DNA from: a virus
DNA: 43,601 bases
Virus record (IMG/VR): IMGVR_UViG_3300009285_003899
Coordinates: 1 to 43,601 of that record
Strand: one strand, 5' to 3'
In this document: positions 7,177-39,335 of the stretch, in pieces
How the letters are laid out: each line of letters begins with the position of its first letter
Position numbering within the stretch: the stretch's first letter is position 1
Notes under the pieces: model-generated
Told to the model about the DNA's origin: nothing
Database searches by the model: none
Seen by the model: the letters and a program-made list of their open reading frames with translations, nothing else
Position numbers and translations under genes: made by a program

Positions 7177-7566
7177 ATGGCTAAATTCGTTTCATACTTT
7201 GAATGTAAACTTCGGGAAGATACGGACGGCATTTGGGTCTGCAAACCGCTTATTTACGAGAGTGACATCCTCCAGCAGACTGTAATAGTCCCTGACGGAT
7301 TCGAGACCGACCTTGCCAGCGTTCCCAGGATTCCTTTGGTCTTTTGGTTTTGGGGAGGACGTTCCCACCGTGAGGGTGTATTGCACGACTACCTTTACCG
7401 CAAGGATAGCATTCCCGTAGTCGCCCGCGATGTGGCGGATCGTATATTCTATGAGGCCATGGCGTGCCGGGGGAAAAGCTGGAATGTGCGCTGGTTCATG
7501 TTCCTGGGGGTTCGCGTCGGGGGATGGACGGCATATCACAAGAGAAACGTGGAGGATAAACTATAA
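7177..7566 (+). CDS. DUF1353 family protein
   Basis: This 129-residue protein carries the pattern of the DUF1353 family common in phages: F-x-T-D-L-A-S-V-P-R (about residues 45-54), then EGVLHDYLYRK with a conserved His-Asp (about residues 71-81), a downstream RDVADRIFYEAM helix and a small hydrophobic C-terminus. The biochemical role of the family is not established, although the HDYLY element is conserved. ATG 7177 follows the previous stop by 2 nt and the stop overlaps the portal start by one base. Confidence 0.75.
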   Translation: MAKFVSYFECKLREDTDGIWVCKPLIYESDILQQTVIVPDGFETDLASVPRIPLVFWFWGGRSHREGVLHDYLYRKDSIPVVARDVADRIFYEAMACRGKSWNVRWFMFLGVRVGGWTAYHKRNVEDKL

Positions 7567-9638
7567 TGGATAAGATAGTCGATACGAAGGATAAGGACAT
7601 ACCGAAGGACGATGCCATCATCCAGCAGGCGCTTGAGCGTTTCCAGAAGGCGGACCTCTACGAAATGGATAACCGCCTTGAAGCTCTGGACGACCTGCAG
7701 ATGCTTGCGGGGAGGAACCACTGGCCTGCAGATGTAGTAGCCAAGCGTACTGAAACTGGTCGTCCCATGCTCACCATCAACAAGCTGCCATCCTTTGCAG
7801 ACCAGGTGATCAACGACTCCCGGATGAATAAGATCGCAATCAAGGTGTCCCCCAATGGAGGCGGGTCTACCGTGGAGCTTTCGGAGACCATGGCTGGCCT
7901 CATCCGCAATATTGAGAATGTAAGTGACGCCGGGGTTGCATATCAGACCGCCTTCGAATCTGCGGTGAATAGTGGCTTTGGCTACTTCATGATCACCACG
8001 GAGTATGCGGACGATAGTAGCTTTGACCTTGACATCTTCATCCGCCGCATCAAGAATCAGTTTACCGTATACCTCGACCCAAACCACGAAGAGGCTGATG
8101 GGAGAGATATAAAATGGGCTTTCATCACTCGCATGGTGAATCGCAAGGAGTACGCAATCCTGTACCCCAAGGCGGACCCCATAACCCCCTTCTCCCAAGT
8201 GAACATCACCGAATTCACCAAGCCTTGGATTGGGGATGCTAAAGTGCGGGTGGCAGAGTATTGGGTGAAGGAGCCTGCGGGGGAAAAGGAAATACTTCTG
8301 CTGAGTGATGGGCGCGTAGTGGATGGGGAGGAGTGGGAGTCCATTGCGGACGACCTCAAGGCTGCTGAAAAGACGATACACCTCGCCCCTTCTCCGGAAG
8401 ATCCCAACGTCCCAGTTGAAGTAGAAGGACCAGCCCCTGAGGGCAGCGGATACCCGGAGACCATACTCAACCCCGCACCCACCATTATGCGTAGTCGTAC
8501 CGTGGAGGTCAGCCACATAATGCAGTACCTCCTCGATGCGGAGAAGATCATCAGCCGCACGGAGTGGCCGGGACGTTACATCCCCATTATCCCCGTATGG
8601 GGTAAGGAGATAATCATTGATGAGATCCGCTACCTCCGTGGAGTCATCCGTAATGCGAAGGATCCACAGCGCATGTACAACTACTTCCGCACTGCAGCGG
8701 CGGAAACTGTAGCCCTCGCCCCCAAAGCTCCCTACCTTGTGGAAGAGGGGCAGATCGAGGGCCATGAGGAGGAGTGGGATTCCATTGGGGAGTCCAATCA
8801 GCCCTACATAGTATATAAGCACGTACCCAACGTGGACCGGCCACGTCGTGAGGTGGTGACGCAGACCGCCATCGGGGAGATTACTGAGTCCAACCTCGCC
8901 AACGACGAGATGAAGGCCACTACCAGCCTCTTTGACGCCTCCCTGGGGCAACGATCCAATGAGACCAGCGGACGCGCCATCCTCGCTCGTCAGCGTGAAG
9001 GTGATGTGGCCAATTTCCTCTTTCACGACAATCTCCGCAGGGCAGTGAAGTGTGCGGGTGACATGCTCATTGACTTGATCCCCAAGGTATACGACACTGA
9101 GAGGCAGGTGACGATACTCAACGTGGATGGTACGGAGAAATTTGTCACTGTAAATCAGGAGGTGACGGATGCAGCCACAGGCCGCAAGGTCGTGGTCAAT
9201 GACCTCTCTCTGGGCAAGTATAAGATCACTGCCACCAGTGGACCCTCCTACACCACCAAGCGAGTGGAAGCTGCAGAATCCATGCTCAATTTCGTGCAGA
9301 CAGCCCCCGACACTGCAAAATTTATGGTGGACCTGATCGCGGAGAATATGGATTGGCCGGGAGCGCAGAAGATCTCCAAACGCTTCAAGAAGCTCCTACC
9401 CCCCGACATTGATGATGAGGGACCCCCGAAACCGCCGCAACCCTCCATGGAGGATATAATTAATCAACTCAAAGCCCAGGGTATAGAGCTTGGGAATGAG
9501 ATAAAGAAGTTGAAGATAGTAACGGATCGCCGCAACCTTGAGGGGCGAGATGCAAGCCTCGTACAGGCTGGGGCACAGGGCGTAATGGATCTTATGAGAG
9601 GAGGTGGTGAGGGTGGCGCGAGTGGAACCCCGGCTTAG
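7566..9638 (+). CDS. portal protein, P22-like
   Basis: This 690-residue protein forms the dodecameric ring at the capsid vertex through which DNA passes. The N-terminal region (ERFQKADLYEMDNRLEALDD, then GRPMLTINKLPSFADQVI) and the following YFMITTEYADDSSFDLDIFI stretch have the sequence character of P22-type portals, and the length is close to P22 gp1 (725). The C-terminal 100 residues are helical (barrel-like) with a Pro-rich break (PPKPPQPS). It is followed, as in P22, by the scaffold and coat genes, with one small gene between. The start overlaps the upstream stop at 7566. Confidence 0.88.
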   Translation: MDKIVDTKDKDIPKDDAIIQQALERFQKADLYEMDNRLEALDDLQMLAGRNHWPADVVAKRTETGRPMLTINKLPSFADQVINDSRMNKIAIKVSPNGGGSTVELSETMAGLIRNIENVSDAGVAYQTAFESAVNSGFGYFMITTEYADDSSFDLDIFIRRIKNQFTVYLDPNHEEADGRDIKWAFITRMVNRKEYAILYPKADPITPFSQVNITEFTKPWIGDAKVRVAEYWVKEPAGEKEILLLSDGRVVDGEEWESIADDLKAAEKTIHLAPSPEDPNVPVEVEGPAPEGSGYPETILNPAPTIMRSRTVEVSHIMQYLLDAEKIISRTEWPGRYIPIIPVWGKEIIIDEIRYLRGVIRNAKDPQRMYNYFRTAAAETVALAPKAPYLVEEGQIEGHEEEWDSIGESNQPYIVYKHVPNVDRPRREVVTQTAIGEITESNLANDEMKATTSLFDASLGQRSNETSGRAILARQREGDVANFLFHDNLRRAVKCAGDMLIDLIPKVYDTERQVTILNVDGTEKFVTVNQEVTDAATGRKVVVNDLSLGKYKITATSGPSYTTKRVEAAESMLNFVQTAPDTAKFMVDLIAENMDWPGAQKISKRFKKLLPPDIDDEGPPKPPQPSMEDIINQLKAQGIELGNEIKKLKIVTDRRNLEGRDASLVQAGAQGVMDLMRGGGEGGASGTPA

Positions 9639-10684: not shown

Positions 10685-11935
10685 ATGGCTGATGTCTTTT
10701 TAACTCATACGATGATAGCGGAACGTGCCCTCTTTGATCTGGTAAACTCCCTTGCCTTGGGGGCGCACGTGTACAAGGGGTATAACACGGAATTTACCAC
10801 GGTGGGTAGATTCAAGAAGGGAGCGTCCGTCAGCATCATGCTCCCCAACAAATTCCGGGTAAAAGACGGAGCTACCATGGACCCGGTAGATGTACAGGAG
10901 CGATCAGTTTCCATCTCAGTGGACAAACATAAACATGTGGCCCTCGACTTTCTGGAGACGGATCTCACCCTCAAGATCGAGGATTACGCGAAGAAGTATA
11001 CCATCCCGGCCACCAATGCGCTGGGCAACTACGTGGACTATGACGGCCTGGGCGAATATGTGAATGTATACAATCTCGTGGGGACTCCCGGCACCCTTCC
11101 GTCCACCTTCGCAGTGCTTGCGGAAGCGGCTACCCGGTTTGCCAATGAAGCAATCCCGGAGGAAGAGAGAGTGGCAATCTGCTCACCCAAGTCTCTGTGG
11201 AGAGGATTTGCAGATGGGGAATTGAAGGGGATCTTCAATCCCGGCATGGTAGAGACCTTGATCAAGAAGGGGTTTGTGGGGAGATATGCCCTCATGGATT
11301 TCTTCCAGGATCAGAACGTGCGAAATCACACGGTAGGTACATGGGATGCGGGGTCCACAGGGGTAATGAATGGAGCTACGGCGGAGGGCGCTACCAGCCT
11401 CGTCACCAATGGCTGGGCAGCATCTACCGTCATTCTCCAGGCAGGTGACGTCTTCACCATCGCTGCCGTCTATGGAGTGAACCCCGTCAGCGGTCAGGTG
11501 TGGGAGGGGAACGAACTTCGCCAGTTCGTGGCCACGGCACAGGTAACTTCTGATGGAGCGGGTGCTGCCACCATTCCCATTGCCCCCAAAATCTACTCCA
11601 GTGCGGCAGCTGAGGACTACCTCCCATACCAGACGGTAGTTACCCTCCCGCAGAATGGTGCAGCCCTCACGGTAGTGGGGTCAGATGCAGGGGTCTATCC
11701 GCAGAATTTGCTCATCCATCCCAACGCAATGGCCCTGACGATGGTTCCGTTCGTGAAGCCGAAGTCTGCAGGGCAGAGCGTGATGTGGGGGCAGGCGTCC
11801 GACAAACTGCTGGGCCTCAGCATCACAGTGGCAACGGCATTCAGTCTCTCCAATTACCGGGAGGACACGAGGTTCGACATCCTGTATGGGTGGGATACCC
11901 CCCAGCCGGAGTACGCAATCCGGTTGACGGCGTAA
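10685..11935 (+). CDS. major coat protein, P22 gp5-like
   Basis: This 416-residue protein (P22 gp5 has 430) builds the icosahedral head. It has the P22-type N-terminal HK97-fold region (LVNSLALGAHVYKG, then FKKGASVSIMLPNKF, VSISVDKHKHVALDF), a segment ALMDFFQDQNVRNHTVGTWD in which the QNV-x-x-HTVG stretch is characteristic of P22-like coats, and a variable beta-rich insertion (about residues 225-330). The C-terminus includes SNYREDTRFDILYG as in that family. A short 5-nt-type ribosome binding site (AGGAG) is present. It should be one of the most highly produced proteins. Confidence 0.9.
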   Translation: MADVFLTHTMIAERALFDLVNSLALGAHVYKGYNTEFTTVGRFKKGASVSIMLPNKFRVKDGATMDPVDVQERSVSISVDKHKHVALDFLETDLTLKIEDYAKKYTIPATNALGNYVDYDGLGEYVNVYNLVGTPGTLPSTFAVLAEAATRFANEAIPEEERVAICSPKSLWRGFADGELKGIFNPGMVETLIKKGFVGRYALMDFFQDQNVRNHTVGTWDAGSTGVMNGATAEGATSLVTNGWAASTVILQAGDVFTIAAVYGVNPVSGQVWEGNELRQFVATAQVTSDGAGAATIPIAPKIYSSAAAEDYLPYQTVVTLPQNGAALTVVGSDAGVYPQNLLIHPNAMALTMVPFVKPKSAGQSVMWGQASDKLLGLSITVATAFSLSNYREDTRFDILYGWDTPQPEYAIRLTA

Positions 11936-26149: not shown

Positions 26150-28765
26150 TTAACGAATCTTGTCCATTGAACCCCACTTGGTCCCACTTTTGAAGTCGAC
26201 CCCCAGCGGTACTATAAAATCCCTGGGGGTCACCCCTATCATAACTCCTCTTATTTGCGGGATGATTATTGTGGGCATCCACTCCTCCATCTCCCATACT
26301 ATGTCGTCGTGAATTTGGATCAGGGGCTTGCAGTACCCCATCTCCTCCTGCACCTCCCGGTATAGGGGGACCAGTCTCCCCATGGCCTCCTTGATTATCC
26401 CCTGTGCCCCCATCTGTATCGGCGCGTTCCCTGCTTGCCTCTCAGCTTCCATTCGTATCCACCTGTTCGTGCTGCGTATCCCCGGAATGTAGCGTATGCG
26501 CCCCCACATGTCGCGGACGTACCCGTACCGCTTGGCTTGCTCCCCGTTGGCCTTCATATACGCTGCAACTCCGGGGTAGATGGCAAACCACGACCTTATC
26601 ATCCCCTTGCAATCGTCCAGGGTCCACCCCCCTGCTCCTCCCACCGCCAACTCCCGCTGCAGACCTTCAGCGGTTATGAGGTTGAGTATGCCGAAGCCCA
26701 CCCTCTTTGCTGGGTATCGGTGCTTCATCTCATCCAGTTGCCCCCTGGGGACCCCAAACATGTCGCTGGCCGTGACGCTGTGTATATCCTCCCCACTCCA
26801 GAATATGGACATCATTCTTTCATCCTTCGCTCCGTCTGCGGCCACTCGCATCTCCACCTGGCTGTAGTCCCCACTCACCAGCACATGACCTGAGGGAGCC
26901 TCATAGCAGTCCCGCACCATTCGTCCCTCTTCACTCCGCACTGGCTGGGCCATGAGGTTGGGGTTGCTGCTACTGAGCCTGCCAGTGGCCACTCGCGTCA
27001 TTCGGATGGTGGTGCGTATACGTCCATCGGGGGATACCATCTTGGGGATTGCGTCCGCATATGACGTCTTCAACTTCTGGTACCCCCTCCAGTCGATAAT
27101 ATCCTCCACTACGGGGTGCAGACCTATGTAACGCTTGAGTATGTCGTCCGCCGTACTGTGGTTTGCTGCACCCTTCTTGGATCTATACCGTCCCCCCACT
27201 TCATGCAGCTTCAACCGGTCGTATATGAGGGTTGCCATCTGCTGGCTGCTCGCGGGGTTAATGGCCTTACCATCGAGGTGCTTCCCCACTGTATACTGCA
27301 TCTTCCTCTGGAGGAGGTCCATCCGCTTCTGCAAGTATGCACTCAGCTTGGAGAATGCAGCCAAGTTCACCGGCATCCCTGCAGCCATCATGTCTACCAC
27401 CATAGGCATCGCTCGCATGTCGCGGCTGAGTGTACCCTCCAGCCCCAAACTCAATATACGCTCCCATAGGATGGGGTATACCCGGATGGTGGCGTCCGCG
27501 TCCCGTGCACTATAATGCACTGCATCCTCCACAGGCACGTCACATAACTCTCCCTGCTGCATCATACCCATCACAGCCTCTACTTGCTCCGTATCCCCCA
27601 TCCGCTTCCATCTTCCGTATAGGTCGTCCCCCTTCTTCAGCGCCGCAGCCACTTTGCGGGCCACATTCTGCGGTTGACGCACTTTGGGTTCCCCCTTCGC
27701 CCACTCAAGGACCGGAGGTGGGTCTGGCCACTCACGCTCCATTACGGCCTCAAGGTACTCCAGAGCGAGCCGATGGGTTGCATCCGCCACCATCTCCTCA
27801 TAGGATGACATCTCCATACCACAGTGGCGGTATGCGAGGGGCTTCAACCCCTGGGGTTCGCTCTGCAGGAGGTATGCCGCCACCATCGTATCTACCACTC
27901 TTGGGGGGTGGATGCCCACGGAAGCCAGCACCGGCAGGTCGTAAAGTGCATTGTGGATGGCCGCGATACACTGCCCGTAGCTCAGGGCTTCATTCAAGAG
28001 GCTGAGGCAAGGCTGCTGGTCGGCCATGATCACCCGTGCGCTCCCTGGGGCTACGGAGACGCTGGAGCACCACATCCGGCCTCTCGCCCACTCCGTATCC
28101 ACTGCCACCAGCGATGGGTTGGGGCCTATATATCGCTCCAGATCCTCTGCGTCCTCCGCGAGTCTGTAGTCCTCCTTCCCCTCCCACTCATCCGTTGGGG
28201 GATGGGGGTGTATGAGGCCACGGATCACGTCCCCTGCCACCTGCATATCCGTATGGAATAGGAGCATCTGATTTGGATCGTGGAGACCAGCGGCGGGATG
28301 GTAGGAGGGTATGACTACGACCTTGAAGCCATGGAAATATATAGTGCGGGGGACTCCGTGGGCAAGCTCCATGTTAATGTCGTCTCCCAGCAGCCACTGG
28401 GTGCTGACCCGACCCATGGTGATGATCCACTTCGGCTTACGACTGAGGATCTCCGCCGTGAGGTGGGCTTCAGTGCAGTTGCGTATCTCCTCCGCTGTGG
28501 GGTTGCGGTTGTCCAAGGGGCGGCACTTGATGACGTTGTCCAGCCACACTCCTCGGTTAGCTATGCCATTGAGCATGAGATGGTGACGTCCCTCCTGGCC
28601 ACTGGTGCCCACTATGGGTCTGCCACTGCGGTCCTCCTCTTCTCCGGGGGCTTCGGCTATGGCCATGACTTCGGGGTCTCTACCGGTGGGGGTGGTGATG
28701 AATTCCTCCCCCCAACAGATGCGGCGGCGAGTGCGGACCAATTCGCTACATAAAGTGCAATTCAT
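26150..28765 (-). CDS. uracil-DNA glycosylase-like / family A DNA polymerase fusion (DpoZ candidate)
   Basis: This 871-residue replicative polymerase has three parts. Residues 1-200 are a family 4-type UDG domain with C3, C6, C81 and C97 as likely 4Fe-4S ligands and EAPGEEEDRSGRPIVGTSGQ (38-57) as the base-pocket motif. Residues about 215-430 are a 3'-5' exonuclease (VDTEW ExoI, IHNALYDL ExoII, YSARDAD ExoIII). Residues about 430-871 are the polymerase: motif A DYSQVEMR (about 634), motif B KRVGFGILNL (about 690), motif C HDDIVWE (about 819). There is no 5'-nuclease. ATG 28765 is chosen because GGAGGGGG is directly upstream and gives the CxxC start. Together with PurZ this is the DpoZ position; Z preference cannot be read from sequence. 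UDG-polymerase fusions also occur in SPO1. Confidence 0.9.
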   Translation of the reverse strand: MNCTLCSELVRTRRRICWGEEFITTPTGRDPEVMAIAEAPGEEEDRSGRPIVGTSGQEGRHHLMLNGIANRGVWLDNVIKCRPLDNRNPTAEEIRNCTEAHLTAEILSRKPKWIITMGRVSTQWLLGDDINMELAHGVPRTIYFHGFKVVVIPSYHPAAGLHDPNQMLLFHTDMQVAGDVIRGLIHPHPPTDEWEGKEDYRLAEDAEDLERYIGPNPSLVAVDTEWARGRMWCSSVSVAPGSARVIMADQQPCLSLLNEALSYGQCIAAIHNALYDLPVLASVGIHPPRVVDTMVAAYLLQSEPQGLKPLAYRHCGMEMSSYEEMVADATHRLALEYLEAVMEREWPDPPPVLEWAKGEPKVRQPQNVARKVAAALKKGDDLYGRWKRMGDTEQVEAVMGMMQQGELCDVPVEDAVHYSARDADATIRVYPILWERILSLGLEGTLSRDMRAMPMVVDMMAAGMPVNLAAFSKLSAYLQKRMDLLQRKMQYTVGKHLDGKAINPASSQQMATLIYDRLKLHEVGGRYRSKKGAANHSTADDILKRYIGLHPVVEDIIDWRGYQKLKTSYADAIPKMVSPDGRIRTTIRMTRVATGRLSSSNPNLMAQPVRSEEGRMVRDCYEAPSGHVLVSGDYSQVEMRVAADGAKDERMMSIFWSGEDIHSVTASDMFGVPRGQLDEMKHRYPAKRVGFGILNLITAEGLQRELAVGGAGGWTLDDCKGMIRSWFAIYPGVAAYMKANGEQAKRYGYVRDMWGRIRYIPGIRSTNRWIRMEAERQAGNAPIQMGAQGIIKEAMGRLVPLYREVQEEMGYCKPLIQIHDDIVWEMEEWMPTIIIPQIRGVMIGVTPRDFIVPLGVDFKSGTKWGSMDKIR

Positions 28766-28788
28766 CCCCCTCCCCCTTTCACGGCTAG

Positions 28789-29388
28789 TCACAGTCCCCT
28801 GTGGGTTATATTGTCGTAATTCGTATATCCATCCACGGACCTGTCTCCCCACATGATGCACTTCCGTATGAGGTCGCGATCATCTCCCCATCTGGTCTCC
28901 CGTCTTCCCCATAGGGCTTTGTACTTTTTGTGGAACCGGCGTAGCCCTCGGATGGTCATAGGCTCAGCATCCACGTAGTCGTGCCCGTGGGGGTTGGCCA
29001 TGTACTCCCACCCTTCCCCCGAAGCTGCGGCCATCAGCGCCCACAATATGGAGGGCATGAGGGCAGTCCCCAGTTTGTCTGCCCAGCACAAGCGGCTTGG
29101 GGGCAATCCAATCTCCTTGGCCAGATACCGCGAGTGGAGGTACACTTCCCACTTCATATCCTCCCATTTACCAACCCCATACCCTATGATTCGGCGTATG
29201 GGGTGAGTGAAGCCGTCAGGACCGTCCATGGATTTGCAGCCCCAATACCCCCAATCGTGGATGATGATGGCTGCAAGCATTTGCAGGTTGAGGGTGCGCC
29301 ACCCGTACAGACGAAGCCAGGCAATGAAGACGAAGATGGGGTGCAGAAGGAATTGGTGACAGCCCCATAATAACGATTTAGACCCCAT
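28789..29388 (-). CDS. HD-domain phosphohydrolase, candidate dATP triphosphohydrolase (DatZ role)
   Basis: This 199-residue protein has HD-domain metal ligands in order: H16 (LHPIFVF), H44-D45 (IIIHDWGYWG), H62 and H85 (LHSRYLAKEIG) and D104 (CWADKLG). The family includes dNTP triphosphohydrolases. In Z-genome phages an HD enzyme (DatZ) destroys dATP so that only dZTP is left for the polymerase; this gene lies 23 bp upstream of the polymerase gene in the same operon and PurZ is encoded in the same genome, so that role is likely but not proven. AGGAGG ends 7 nt before ATG 29388. It belongs to a phage HD group with a conserved HDWGYWGC-type motif and is not a close match to S-2L DatZ by eye. 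Confidence 0.75.
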   Translation of the reverse strand: MGSKSLLWGCHQFLLHPIFVFIAWLRLYGWRTLNLQMLAAIIIHDWGYWGCKSMDGPDGFTHPIRRIIGYGVGKWEDMKWEVYLHSRYLAKEIGLPPSRLCWADKLGTALMPSILWALMAAASGEGWEYMANPHGHDYVDAEPMTIRGLRRFHKKYKALWGRRETRWGDDRDLIRKCIMWGDRSVDGYTNYDNITHRGL

Positions 29389-29525: not shown

Positions 29526-29843
29526 TTAGTCTCCCACCATATCGTCTGTGCGATATTTGTTTGCCACCAACTGCACTCTGGTGACTGCGTGGACGAACCC
29601 TACGCTACGCTCGTTGAGATTATTGGAGTACTCCGGGTGCATTTTCAAGTTGGCCACCACCTCATCCAACTCCTCCACCATACACTGCAGCCGGGGTTCC
29701 GCTGTCACCTTTGGGCTGCTCGCGGCCATTTCCTCCAGTATCTCCTGGGCCACCGCTCCCCGCACAACCAGTTGCACTGACAGTTTTCTTCCTGCCTTGG
29801 AGATTACCAACCAGTATTCCCCATTACACTTCATCACTCTCAT
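29526..29843 (-). CDS. hypothetical protein
   Basis: This is a 105-residue soluble protein. Two N-terminal strands (GEYWLVISKAGRKLSVQLVV) precede a helical middle (QEILEEMAASS, CMVEELDEVVANLKM). ATG 29843 is preferred over GTG 29849 because GGAGG ends 5 nt before it. The gene overlaps the end of the ERCC4 nuclease gene by 20 bp. Function unknown; operon context suggests a role in DNA metabolism. Confidence 0.55.
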   Translation of the reverse strand: MRVMKCNGEYWLVISKAGRKLSVQLVVRGAVAQEILEEMAASSPKVTAEPRLQCMVEELDEVVANLKMHPEYSNNLNERSVGFVHAVTRVQLVANKYRTDDMVGD

Positions 29844-30558
29844 CTTCACCTCCCCATATTTGCTTCGCTATAGATTTTGCCAGTTTGGGGCCTATACCAT
29901 CCACTACAGCCCAATCCTCTGCCTCAAGTACGTCCTTCATCGTGGGGAACGCTGCCCCCAATTTGCGGGCCTTGTCCCACCCTATACCTTCCAGTTGGGA
30001 GAAGAAGCGAGTAGTGAGTCCCGGCTTGCTGAGTTGGGCATGGGCCACTGGTTTGTGGAACTGGAGGTGCGACTTGTGGGAGGTCCAAGGCTTGGACCAC
30101 CACCCGTGGATGGAGTCCAGCCACTTTGCAGACTCCCACTTGCTGCTTGTAGCCACCGTCGTCACCCCACACATCACTCCCATACTGGAGATGAAATTCC
30201 ATACGTCCCGTGCCATGAAGCGTCTCGATCCCTGTGAAGCTGCTACCCACTTTCCCTTGTGGTTCATCCGCATCAACATGCCATGCTCCCGGTCCGCTCT
30301 CCACACCCCCTCCAGTATGATGTACACCCAATCATACTGCTGGGTGAGACCCACAAGCTGGTGTCCACTCAAGCGGCCTGTAGTCATGGACTGGAGGAAG
30401 TCGAGTATGGACTTGCGCTCCACACCCACATTCACAGGACCAGTGGGGCCACACCCGGACCAACAAAAGTCGGCATAGTCCAGGTGACATACCACATGGG
30501 GTGCCCCCAGCAACTCGGCTAACTCCACTGCTCCTGTACGATCATCGACGAGTATCAT
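29824..30558 (-). CDS. ERCC4-type (XPF/Mus81-like) structure-specific nuclease
   Basis: This 244-residue protein has the catalytic ERKxxxD motif of XPF/Mus81 nucleases at residues 47-53 (ERKSILD), with the preceding acidic strand LVDD at 3-6 and D27/D30 near VCHLDYAD. The C-terminus (about 185-235) has tandem helix-hairpin-helix character (LEGIGWDKARKLGAAFP, WAVVDGIGPKLAKSIAKQI), which binds branched DNA. Such enzymes cut flaps, forks or Holliday junctions and fit recombination-dependent replication or debranching before packaging. It sits with a Sak4-like ATPase, a PD-(D/E)XK nuclease and a helicase. Confidence 0.85.
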   Translation of the reverse strand: MILVDDRTGAVELAELLGAPHVVCHLDYADFCWSGCGPTGPVNVGVERKSILDFLQSMTTGRLSGHQLVGLTQQYDWVYIILEGVWRADREHGMLMRMNHKGKWVAASQGSRRFMARDVWNFISSMGVMCGVTTVATSSKWESAKWLDSIHGWWSKPWTSHKSHLQFHKPVAHAQLSKPGLTTRFFSQLEGIGWDKARKLGAAFPTMKDVLEAEDWAVVDGIGPKLAKSIAKQIWGGEDESDEV

Positions 30559-36267: not shown

Positions 36268-36791
36268 TCCGTACCCCCCATCACCCCCAAGTTGGCCTTC
36301 GTTGCCTTCTTCATGAGTCCCCCGTACTTCTCCACCAGTTTCGCCTTATACTTGTCCTTCCAGAACCCAGGGGGCATCTCCCCCACGTGACCTTGGACTA
36401 TCATTAGCAGCCTCATTGCCTCCCGGTCACTGCCCTCCGTCATATGGCGGCTGATTCTCTCCTCCAATTTGTCGAAGACCTGGGCGAAGTCGTTGCTCAT
36501 CTCCTCATCCCGCATGACCTCCAGGATCGTATCCACCTGGCCACTGACGGAGACCATAGGCTCCACGGACTGCAGCCATCTCATATGCCGGTGGAGTGCA
36601 TGCCGAAGGATGTCCCCTTTAGTGCGGTAGGGGAAGCTCCGAGCCTGCAGCATCTGCTCCAATTGCCGCGTCATGGCTGGTATGCAGCGGAACCACAACC
36701 TTGCCGAGTGCCCTTTAGTGTCCGACGCCGTTATGCGAAATTCTTCGGGGGAGGGCCTATCTTCTGGTTGATCAACTGCTCTTAGCGACAT
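36264..36791 (-). CDS. putative ribbon-helix-helix-like protein
   Basis: The 175-residue protein has near its N-terminus ARLWFRCIPAMTRQLEQ followed by two helices, suggesting a ribbon-helix-helix DNA-binding unit. Long helices follow (TILEVMRDEEMSNDFAQVF, LEERISRHM). It is the second gene of the early leftward operon, overlapping the HTH regulator gene by 20 bp, so it may be a second regulator or a partition-like factor. Evidence for RHH is only pattern-based. Confidence 0.5.
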   Translation of the reverse strand: MSLRAVDQPEDRPSPEEFRITASDTKGHSARLWFRCIPAMTRQLEQMLQARSFPYRTKGDILRHALHRHMRWLQSVEPMVSVSGQVDTILEVMRDEEMSNDFAQVFDKLEERISRHMTEGSDREAMRLLMIVQGHVGEMPPGFWKDKYKAKLVEKYGGLMKKATKANLGVMGGTE

Positions 36792-37011
36792 TCATATTTC
36801 CTTTCTCCAGCATGTCAGTGAATTCCCCCAGCCCCATCCCCAGCATCTTGGCCAAGTCGATGGCACACTTCATGGATGGGGTAGTCTCCCTGCGGAATAC
36901 GCGGCTGACATGCCCCTTGGTATATCCCGTGAGCCTGGCCAACTGGGAGAGGTTGACGAACTTGCGATCCTTCTTCGTCCCGTCCCGTATAATGAGAGTG
37001 AATTCTGCCAT
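36772..37011 (-). CDS. Cro/XRE-like HTH regulator
   Basis: This 79-residue protein contains FVNLSQLARLTGYTKGHVSRVFRRETTPSM, a compact helix-turn-helix, followed by CAIDLAKMLGMGLGEF, as in XRE/Cro proteins. It is the first gene transcribed leftward from the divergent promoter region, so it is likely autoregulated and may also act on the facing PurZ-operon promoter. ATG 37011 has AAAGGG upstream; a longer upstream reading frame lacks support. No lysogeny module was found, so it is probably a timing regulator. Confidence 0.78.
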   Translation of the reverse strand: MAEFTLIIRDGTKKDRKFVNLSQLARLTGYTKGHVSRVFRRETTPSMKCAIDLAKMLGMGLGEFTDMLEKGNMNVAKSS

Positions 37012-37217: not shown

Positions 37218-37487
37218 ATGGAGCGAACGACGAGGCGAAGACTGCAGGCGGAGTTACACGCCATTGAGCAGGAGTTGGATAAGACGACGGCGGAGGAGAA
37301 CTCCCCATACCGCTACGCAAGGCAAAAACTAAATCGAAGAAAGGAGGCGATACTTAGGGCATTGAAGGGGGATCCCCGATTTGAGGCCACAGGGGAACTG
37401 CAGAGAGTAGGGGGCCTCACGTCACCGGAGCAGAAGGTATACCGCATGAAGCGGGCACTACAACAACTAAAGGAGGAACTGGAATGA
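37218..37487 (+). CDS. small coiled-coil protein upstream of purZ
   Basis: This 89-residue, highly charged protein is made of two helices (RRLQAELHAIEQELDKTTAEE and a longer one to the end, MKRALQQLKEELE) with heptad pattern. It is the first gene of the PurZ operon, and its stop overlaps the purZ start (ATGA). A G-rich run (GCGGGGGG) precedes ATG 37218. Function unknown; regulator or accessory role to the nucleotide pathway is possible from position. Confidence 0.65.
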   Translation: MERTTRRRLQAELHAIEQELDKTTAEENSPYRYARQKLNRRKEAILRALKGDPRFEATGELQRVGGLTSPEQKVYRMKRALQQLKEELE

Positions 37488-38566
37488 AGAGAGGCAAATT
37501 CAACATTATAATTGGAGGGCAAGCAGGGAGTGAAGCAAAGGGGAAGCTCAGTGGCTTCCTGTGTGAGCAGTACAAACCGGATCTGCTGGTAATGACCGCC
37601 AGCCCCAACGCGGGGCACACGGTAGTGACGGATGAAGGGGTGAAGAAGGTGAGTTACCACCTGCCCATCGGGATGGTAATGTGCGATGCCCCTGTGGTGT
37701 TGGGACCGGCCAGCCTCATCAATGTGGTTATACTGGAGAAGGAAATCCACGACCTGGGAGTGGACCCCAACCGCATTATGATAGACCCCAGGGCCTCAAT
37801 CATTACCCCTGGCCATGTTGCGAGCGAATGCAACGGGAGGATGAGCGACATCGGCAGCACTCTGCAGGGGATAGGGGAATGCCGCACGGGGAAGATGAGG
37901 CGGAAGGACCACTACTTTGTGGGGGACATATGGGAGGAACTGGGTGCCTTTGGAGTGCAGGTAGGGGAGACCACACCCATCATCCACATGCATATGTCCA
38001 GGGGGGACCGCGTACTGTGTGAAGCCACCCAGGGATTCGACCTCGACTTGGAGCACGGCATTGACCGACGCTACTGCACCTCCAAGATGATCAACACCTC
38101 CATGGTGGCGGCGGAAGCGGGGGTGCCACCCTCAATGGTAGGGGAAGTGTATGGAGTCATTCGCCCCTACCCCATAAGGGTGAACAATCGGACTGGTAGC
38201 AGTGGACCTTATGCGGAGGCGGAGGAGTTAAGCTGGGGTGTAGTGGCGGACCGGTGCGGTGCTCCCTATGGATTTGAAGGGGAGATCACCACCACCACCA
38301 AGCTCCCCCGTCGCGTCTTCGAGTTCTGCTGGTCCCGGTTTGAGGCTTTCCTTCAAGTATGCCGCCCCACATCCCTATGCCTCCAGTTTGCCAATTACCT
38401 CAACTGGAGTGCATTTGGGGCGAAGTATGAAGACGAATTGAGGGATAACGAGCGGGTGACGGGCTTCATCGAGCAACTGGAGGATGAGACGATGGAGTAT
38501 GGGGATGCAAGGGTGGACTTTGTGGGCACTGGACCCCAACAATCACAAATGGTGTGGAGGAGGTAG
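37484..38566 (+). CDS. purZ: PurZ, aminoadenylosuccinate synthetase for 2-aminoadenine DNA
   Basis: This 360-residue protein is a PurA relative. Its P-loop region GGQAGSEAKGK (residues 11-21) has Ser16 where PurA has its catalytic Asp (GTQWGDEGKGK); this Asp-to-Ser change marks PurZ. NAGHT at 42-46 keeps the PurA His. PurZ couples Asp to dGMP to give aminodeoxyadenylosuccinate, the first step towards dZTP. The downstream body (GPASLINVVILEKEI, RVLCEATQGFDLDLEHG, TGSSGP) is PurA-like, and the length is shorter than cellular PurA (about 430). AAAGGAGGAA precedes the start. The MazZ-like gene follows after 1 bp. A diverged PurA is the alternative, but the genome context makes PurZ the better call. 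Confidence 0.9.
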   Translation: MKRGKFNIIIGGQAGSEAKGKLSGFLCEQYKPDLLVMTASPNAGHTVVTDEGVKKVSYHLPIGMVMCDAPVVLGPASLINVVILEKEIHDLGVDPNRIMIDPRASIITPGHVASECNGRMSDIGSTLQGIGECRTGKMRRKDHYFVGDIWEELGAFGVQVGETTPIIHMHMSRGDRVLCEATQGFDLDLEHGIDRRYCTSKMINTSMVAAEAGVPPSMVGEVYGVIRPYPIRVNNRTGSSGPYAEAEELSWGVVADRCGAPYGFEGEITTTTKLPRRVFEFCWSRFEAFLQVCRPTSLCLQFANYLNWSAFGAKYEDELRDNERVTGFIEQLEDETMEYGDARVDFVGTGPQQSQMVWRR

Positions 38567-38567
38567 T

Positions 38568-39335
38568 ATGGCTCCAGGGTTGTGGGAGAGCATATTTGGG
38601 TTCGACTTGTTTGATCCAAATCTTGGGCATTTATATAAAGGAGGTAGTATGGACAAGAAATACTCGGAGGAAATGGAGAATACAGCGTGCGAGCGGGAAA
38701 TTGGCAGAGTAAGGATTGGGGACATTCTCATAGTGTACGATCGTTACCTATTTGCTCTCCCGGTCAAGGGAGTAGTGATGGGTAAATCTACCCACGATGG
38801 GAGTATACAAATAAACTTCCACCCGTTCAAGGATACAAACCACGGAGGGATAAATACCCTTGCTTATTCCGGAAAGTACTTTCACCCTGAACAATGTCGT
38901 CGCCTTGACGGGTCCCCACTGTTAGACGAGTCCTTCGAACCAAAGAGGGTGAACGCAGTAAAGAATCCGGATACTCCCGACATACTAAGCGGGGCTGAGG
39001 ATGAACGCCTCGACCCGCTGCAGGGGAATCTCATCGGCTACATTCCCTTTGCATACCACTTGGTCCCACCTCGCGGATTTGCGAAGGTGGCGGCGGTCAT
39101 GCGCTGTGGGGAACGGAAGGGGAGATCCCCCAATGAATGGCGGCAGGTGCCAATTGCGGAGCACATAAACCACGCTATAAGCCACCTGCAGGCATACCTC
39201 GCGGGGAGGAGTGGTCACAGCCACCTGGCTAACGCGGGGTGTAGGGTGTTGATGGCGCTGGACCTCGATCGGAGGGAGCGGTTGCCGGAGCCAGTGTACG
39301 ATCCCCGGTTGAAGGTTGAGGACCCGTATCCGTAG
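38568..39335 (+). CDS. mazZ: MazZ-like dATP/dGTP diphosphohydrolase
   Basis: This protein has 255 residues from ATG 38568; an in-frame ATG at 38649 (228 residues) carries the same AGGAGGTAGTATGG context, so two starts are possible. The C-terminal domain (about residues 155-240) fits the dATP/dGTP diphosphohydrolase family (DUF5664 type): HLVPPRGFAKVAAVM, N-x-W (NEWRQ), EHINHAISHLQAYLAG, HSHLANAGCRVLMALDLD. This type of MazG-like enzyme removes pyrophosphate from dATP or dGTP; in Z phages MazZ makes dGMP for PurZ. The N-terminal part (residues 40-100) is an added beta-domain. Operon position right after purZ supports the role. Confidence 0.7.
   Translation: MAPGLWESIFGFDLFDPNLGHLYKGGSMDKKYSEEMENTACEREIGRVRIGDILIVYDRYLFALPVKGVVMGKSTHDGSIQINFHPFKDTNHGGINTLAYSGKYFHPEQCRRLDGSPLLDESFEPKRVNAVKNPDTPDILSGAEDERLDPLQGNLIGYIPFAYHLVPPRGFAKVAAVMRCGERKGRSPNEWRQVPIAEHINHAISHLQAYLAGRSGHSHLANAGCRVLMALDLDRRERLPEPVYDPRLKVEDPYP

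What the first reader, a model, noticed from the sequence alone, without database searches (positions are those of the whole stretch)
37484..39335. Predicted 2-aminoadenine (Z) genome pathway in a P22-like podovirus
PurZ with Ser16 replacing the PurA catalytic Asp is followed at once by a MazZ-like dATP/dGTP diphosphohydrolase. A HD hydrolase next to a family A polymerase elsewhere in the genome can fill the DatZ and DpoZ roles. Together these make up the known Z-pathway; the prediction is that this phage's DNA carries Z in place of A. The set here is split over two divergent operons with a shared promoter region and is joined to a P22-type virion module.
Basis: partly seen in the sequence, partly recalled or inferred. 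Interest (0 to 1): 0.9.

Follow-up and report, generated by a model that had tools for sequence, protein, structure and literature searches.

The report
Third phage lineage replacing adenine
This uncultivated P22-like phage carries a divergent version of the known enzyme set that swaps the DNA base adenine for 2-aminoadenine (Z); its key enzyme and polymerase both fall outside the two lineages characterised so far, so it probably has Z-DNA, but no chemistry has been tested.

Summary
In detail: a 360-aa PurZ (37484-38566) with Ser16 at the PurA Asp13 position, followed directly by a DUF5664 dATP/dGTP diphosphohydrolase gene ending at 39335, in a P22-like phage. With 15 relatives the PurZ forms its own clade (100/100), joined to classical PurZ; grouping with PurA is rejected (p 0.0175). 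Catalytic residues are kept; Arg303 is Leu, and Asp333 is Asn as in ATP-using PurZ. It scores far below the curated PurZ cut-off (179 against 300 bits), so it is easily missed. Two new points. First, the slot before the polymerase holds either this HD gene or a deoxyribosyltransferase-like gene, never both, with at least four switches; two genomes fuse the latter to DUF5664. Second, the helix-O tyrosine that both known DpoZ lineages changed to Phe is Asn in every relative. This is a new variant of the known Z-genome pathway. Z in the virion DNA is untested.

The parts
37484..38566 (+). purZ-type 2-amino-adenylosuccinate synthetase, 360 aa, Ser16 in place of the PurA catalytic Asp
38568..39335 (+). 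DUF5664 (PF18909) dATP/dGTP diphosphohydrolase-type gene; start 38568 or 38649 (both with SD); PF18909 domain in the C-terminal part, unassigned N-terminal part
37218..37487 (+). small charged protein whose stop overlaps the purZ start (ATGA); homologues in the same place in L005, L008, L017, L024, L036
28789..29388 (-). HD-type hydrolase candidate (H11...H44-D45...D104) in the slot before the polymerase; candidate dATP/dAMP-removing enzyme
   Evidence: no Pfam/PHROG/NCBIfam hit
26150..28861 (-). DNA polymerase: family-4 UDG domain + 3'-5' exonuclease + family A polymerase; likely start about 28765; helix-O Tyr replaced by Asn
29824..30558 (-). ERCC4/HhH nuclease that bounds the HD/NDT slot on its far side
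36772..37011 (-). HTH (Cro-like, by eye) gene heading the leftward replication operon, divergent from the purZ operon
7566..9638 (+). P22-like portal protein
10685..11935 (+). P22-type coat protein

Best explanation
The phage makes Z-DNA. The DUF5664 enzyme cuts dGTP and dATP to dGMP and dAMP. PurZ joins dGMP and aspartate, with ATP, to give succino-amino-dAMP. Host PurB and kinases turn that into dZTP. The HD enzyme (or, in sister phages, a deoxyribosyltransferase-like enzyme) destroys the remaining dATP/dAMP, and the phage's own UDG-PolA polymerase copies the genome from dZTP. Shown here: gene content, catalytic residues, phylogeny, conserved linkage and the HD/NDT exchange. Inferred: every enzyme activity, the host steps, and Z in the virion.
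For: PurZ clade 100/100, separate from PurA 100/99 and stable without long branches; grouping with PurA rejected, p-AU 0.0175. Ser16 in all 15 relatives; H45, T126, R140, Q183, T199, R276 kept; R303 to L274; D333 to N304 as in classical PurZ. AF2 model pLDDT 78.8 matches PurZ structures 7odx and 6fm1 (E 1.6e-21, 5.3e-20), and PurA 2d7u equally well. A PF18909-type gene follows purZ in 16 of 19 purZ contigs where the place is readable; Wayne DUF5664 hydrolyses dATP and dGTP (PMC12884076). Slot before pol: HD in 11 contigs, NDT-like in 7 (two fused to DUF5664), a GSTRF Rossmann gene in 2, HD and NDT never together; at least 4 HD/non-HD switches on the tree. NDT group matches PHROG 355 nucleoside 2-deoxyribosyltransferase, E down to 4.5e-21. 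Helix-O Tyr is Asn in all readable relatives; PMC8599892 reports Tyr to Phe there as the only characteristic change shared by both known DpoZ lineages.
Against: PurZ scores 178.6 bits against a curated cut-off of 300, while known PurZ score 346-421. HD protein: no homology to DatZ; model pLDDT 64, no significant fold match. Polymerase outside both DpoZ clades, so Z preference is unproven. Window-type DUF5664 lacks the acidic residue kept in SH-Ab 15497 and Vulture. ctLwi270, a podovirus with UDG-type polymerase, NTP-PPase and NDT-like gene, shows no purZ hit, so NDT genes near such polymerases are not specific to purZ phages.
Confidence: 0.8

Rival explanations
1. dZTP is made but only partly replaces A, because this polymerase is a normal PolA that accepts both; the genome is mixed A/Z.
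For: The polymerase is not in DpoZ-1 or DpoZ-2 and scores 92.5 and 68.7 bits against DpoZ cut-offs of 500 and 350. S-2L uses a non-selective PrimPol and relies on DatZ to remove dATP (PMC8065100).
Against: A candidate dATP/dAMP-removing gene is kept in nearly every relative where the slot could be read; helix-O Tyr is lost in all readable relatives.
Confidence: 0.12
2. It is a phage PurA that boosts ordinary AMP/dATP synthesis.
For: The archaeal-type PurA model scores 162 bits, near the PurZ model at 179, and slightly better than PurZ in two relatives; the best fold match is archaeal PurA 2d7u.
Against: Catalytic Asp is Ser and Arg303 is Leu in all relatives; the tree rejects grouping with PurA; the neighbouring DUF5664 family destroys dATP rather than supplying it (PMC12884076).
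Confidence: 0.04
3. The pathway makes a further modified base, for example a retained N6-succino group or other adduct, rather than plain Z.
For: No phage PurB was seen; the N-terminal part of the DUF5664 gene and several early genes are unassigned.
Against: Known PurZ phages also rely on host enzymes for these steps (PMC8342488, PMC12884076); no base-modifying enzyme family turned up in the genes scanned.
Confidence: 0.03

Closest known systems
Z-cluster of S-2L, phiVC8 and SH-Ab 15497 (PurZ, DatZ, MazZ; DpoZ-2 where present)
   Same: Ser for Asp in PurZ; Asn/Gln at the guanine-sensing Asp; a nucleotide diphosphohydrolase directly after purZ; an HD protein; a PolA in phiVC8 and SH-Ab (absent from S-2L)
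   Different: PurZ is a separate clade, about 30-35% identical; the HD gene sits in the other operon and is not recognisably DatZ; the polymerase is a UDG fusion outside DpoZ-2
PurZ0 phages (Ghobes, Wayne/Vulture): PurZ0, DutZ, DmtZ, DUF5664-1, DpoZ-1
   Same: Use of DUF5664; sister phages use an NDT-like enzyme, twice fused to a diphosphohydrolase, as DmtZ is fused to DutZ in Wayne
   Different: PurZ is not PurZ0 (Asn, not Asp, at the nucleotide-sensing site); no Dut gene was found in the genes scanned; the NDT fusion partner is DUF5664 instead of Dut
UDG-PolA fusion polymerases of Pseudomonas phages Lebethron and Almagne
   Same: Same domain order UDG-exo-PolA
   Different: They keep the helix-O Tyr-Gly, form another clade, and show no purZ hit near the polymerase; thymidylate genes lie next to it
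Bacillus phage vB_BpsS-140 'PurA'
   Same: Ser at the catalytic position, Asn at the Asp333 position; branches at the base of PurZ plus this clade
   Different: No DUF5664, HD or NDT is annotated next to it; the phage encodes Dut and adenylate kinase

Membership tests
PurZ (2-amino-adenylosuccinate synthetase) | Catalytic Asp13 replaced by Ser | tested here: met
   Ser16, invariant in 15 relatives
PurZ (2-amino-adenylosuccinate synthetase) | Groups with PurZ/PurZ0 and not with PurA | tested here: met
   100/99 split from PurA; p-AU 0.0175 against grouping with PurA. Archaeal PurZ-like basal sequences were not included
PurZ (2-amino-adenylosuccinate synthetase) | Passes the NCBIfam NF038379 cut-off (300 bits) | tested here: not met
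   178.6 bits; known PurZ and PurZ0 346-421 bits
PurZ (2-amino-adenylosuccinate synthetase) | Uses dGMP + Asp + ATP | not testable with these tools
   Only predicted from R303 to L274 and D333 to N304
Classical PurZ or PurZ0 subclade | Falls inside one of the two described subclades | tested here: not met
   Own clade 100/100; sister to PurZ 90/84, or 100/97 without long branches
DUF5664 dATP/dGTP diphosphohydrolase | PF18909 match above cut-off | tested here: met
   41.6 bits against 27
DUF5664 dATP/dGTP diphosphohydrolase | Acidic motif (DEESG, DPE) of characterised members or their close kin kept | tested here: not met
   GRSGHSHLANAG in the window; acidic residue kept in L004, L009, L021, SH-Ab 15497 and Vulture
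DatZ | HD motif order H...HD...D | tested here: met
   H11, H44-D45, D104 invariant in 7 aligned members
DatZ | Sequence or fold homology to DatZ/YfbR | tested here: not met
   hhalign probability 0.1 with shallow profiles; no significant Foldseek hit, though HD hydrolases have the highest probabilities, 0.08-0.23
DpoZ | Clusters with DpoZ-1 or DpoZ-2 / passes NF038380 or NF038381 | tested here: not met
   Own clade 100/100; 92.5 of 500 and 68.7 of 350 bits
DpoZ | Loss of the helix-O Tyr | tested here: met
   Asn instead of the Phe of known DpoZ, in all readable relatives
DmtZ (sister phages) | NDT family with catalytic Glu | tested here: inconclusive
   PHROG 355, Pfam DUF7768/DUF4406, invariant Asp and Glu; only a weak hhalign match to Ghobes DmtZ
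P22-like podovirus | P22 portal and coat families | tested here: met

The most novel reading that the evidence does not exclude
This is a third, independently assembled Z-genome system: a third PurZ clade; a UDG-fused family A polymerase that became Z-selective on its own through loss of the same helix-O tyrosine (to Asn); and an adenine-nucleotide removal slot filled interchangeably by an HD hydrolase or a DmtZ-like enzyme, including DUF5664-NDT fusions that could run dATP to dAMP to adenine (or dZMP) in one protein.
Probability: 0.5. Interest if true: 0.72.

Novelty: new variant of a known kind. Interest (0 to 1): 0.58.

Why it matters
The published survey used NCBI viruses and recognised two PurZ clades and two DpoZ clades (PMC12884076). 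This lineage falls outside both and below the PurZ annotation cut-off, so Z-DNA phages are probably under-counted. It offers a third natural polymerase in which to test what makes a polymerase choose Z, with a specific residue to test, and a natural exchange of HD and NDT enzymes that makes the adenine-removal step testable.

Tried and rejected
HD protein against PDB sequences, Pfam, PHROGs, NCBIfam and hhalign to DatZ (56): nothing. Foldseek of the HD model: no significant match. NDT profile against PDB: only designed proteins and an RNase. DUF5664 window protein against PDB: none. Placement with PurZ0: not favoured (p-AU 0.079) but not firmly rejected; with Bacillus vB_BpsS-140: not rejected (p 0.30). 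Promoter/terminator scan of the divergent region: near chance. Polymerase relatives lacking purZ: the close ones without visible purZ (L026, L028, L030, L034) are short contigs, so no clean purZ-minus sister was found. One genome contig (Dehalococcoidia MAG, L036) hints at a host, but binning error is not excluded. L005's 108-aa protein after purZ looks MazG/DUF1599-like by eye; Pfam did not confirm it.

Full report
What is there. The window is a 43,601-bp IMG/VR viral record. ORF 37484-38566 (+) encodes a 360-aa adenylosuccinate-synthetase-family protein (Pfam 2.2e-31; PHROG 1211, 1.2e-54). The gene after it ends at 39335 and carries a PF18909 (DUF5664) dATP/dGTP diphosphohydrolase domain (1.2e-10). 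Its start is 38568 or 38649. The leftward operon holds an ERCC4/HhH nuclease, an HD-type protein (28789-29388) and a polymerase (26150-28861) with family-4 uracil glycosylase, exonuclease and PolA domains. Portal and coat are P22-type.

Is it PurZ? Aligned to PurA and PurZ, the E. coli catalytic Asp13 is Ser16. His41, Thr129, Arg143, Gln224, Thr239 and Arg305 are kept. Arg303, which senses the 2'-OH of IMP (PMC8342488), is Leu274; classical PurZ has Lys, Leu or Arg in that column. Asp333, retained in PurA and PurZ0, is Asn304, as in ATP-using PurZ (Asn or Gln). From this I predict a deoxy substrate and ATP; this is inference. The AF2 model (pLDDT 78.8) matches archaeal PurA and PurZ structures about equally, so fold alone does not decide it.

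Placement. Fifteen relatives put in the tree all keep Ser. With the window they form one clade at 100/100, split from PurA at 100/99, separate from PurZ0, and sister to classical PurZ (90/84; 100/97 once long branches are removed). Forcing them with PurA is rejected (p-AU 0.0175); with PurZ0 it is disfavoured but not rejected (0.079). The curated PurZ model gives 164-179 bits for three members of this clade against a cut-off of 300, while known PurZ and PurZ0 score 346-421. Automatic annotation by that model would not name these proteins PurZ.

The gene after purZ. It is a PF18909-type protein in 16 of the 19 purZ contigs where that place can be read; L005 has an unassigned small protein, and L010 and L022 have none. 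Two forms occur: a canonical DUF5664 (L004, L009, L019-L021) and the window form, which keeps the Trp and His positions but lacks the acidic residue of the DEESG/DPE motif seen in SH-Ab 15497 and Vulture. DUF5664 from phage Wayne hydrolyses dATP, dGTP and dUTP (PMC12884076). Activity of the window form is inferred.

The slot before the polymerase. A local profile of the HD protein finds it in 11 contigs. A profile of an NDT-like protein finds that in 7 others. None has both. Two further contigs (L012, L008/L027) carry a 'CLCGSTRF' Rossmann protein in the slot with at most a marginal NDT match. The NDT group matches PHROG 355 nucleoside 2-deoxyribosyltransferase (E 4.5e-21 to 5.9e-8) and Pfam DUF7768/DUF4406. 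In L011 and L023 it is fused to DUF5664. On a six-gene tree of 18 contigs the HD/non-HD state changes at least four times, two of them forced by strong branches. Several HD contigs are near-identical, so the independent number is smaller than 11. DatZ destroys dATP, and DmtZ destroys dAMP or moves its sugar phosphate onto Z (PMC12884076). Replacement of one by the other in the same place is what is expected if the slot's job is to remove adenine nucleotides. Caution: ctLwi270 (MW202554), a podovirus with a UDG-type polymerase, carries an NTP-PPase and an NDT-like gene with no purZ hit, so such genes are not specific to purZ phages.

HD protein. H11, H44-D45 and D104 are invariant in seven aligned members, the order expected of HD hydrolases, but no library, PDB or DatZ comparison matches. 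The AF2 model is weak (pLDDT 64). Its PDB hits are not significant, though those with the highest probability (0.08-0.23) are HD hydrolases. I call it an HD-type candidate, not DatZ.

Polymerase. It forms its own clade at 100/100, apart from DpoZ-1, DpoZ-2 and the UDG-PolA enzymes of Pseudomonas phages. At the helix-O position where PolA enzymes carry a conserved Tyr, both DpoZ lineages have Phe (PMC8599892; seen also). All readable members of this clade have Asn, and the control polymerases keep Tyr. This suggests, without proving it, a third polymerase adapted at the same site. How often Asn occurs there in ordinary phage PolA was not counted.

Verdict. Its reading is right in outline, but the DatZ and DpoZ roles are analogies. 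Best account: a new variant of the Z-genome pathway in an uncultivated P22-like lineage. No chemistry has been tested.

Noticed in passing
L025:10001-11557: The purZ of IMGVR_UViG_3300031354_000002 carries an intein-like insert right after the residue matching Tyr197, in a conserved active-site stretch (PF14890 E 3.7e-5 and PT-HINT 2.2e-5, both below cut-off).
   Followed up: partly
L011:3701-4474 and L023:4143-4766: DUF5664 and deoxyribosyltransferase-like domains fused in one protein.
   Followed up: partly
window 26150-28861: Polymerase fused to a family-4 uracil-DNA glycosylase domain; why a Z-phage polymerase would carry it is open.
   Followed up: no
L036 (JAUXIH010000023.1): A relative sits in a Dehalococcoidia metagenome-assembled genome that has its own normal PurA elsewhere; possible host hint or binning error.
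   Followed up: partly
window about 38700-38900; L025:11564-12481; L018:1102-1713: The N-terminal part of the window DUF5664 gene resembles the N-terminal part of the L025 protein and, by eye, a free-standing gene in L018; function unknown.
   Followed up: no
L013:11956-13077 (Bacillus phage vB_BpsS-140): The annotated purA has Ser at the catalytic position and branches at the base of PurZ plus this clade; the phage also encodes adenylate kinase and Dut.
   Followed up: partly
L038/L056 (MW202554, ctLwi270): Podovirus with UDG-type polymerase, NTP-PPase and NDT-like gene and no purZ hit; a possible control or a remnant of a nucleotide pathway.
   Followed up: partly
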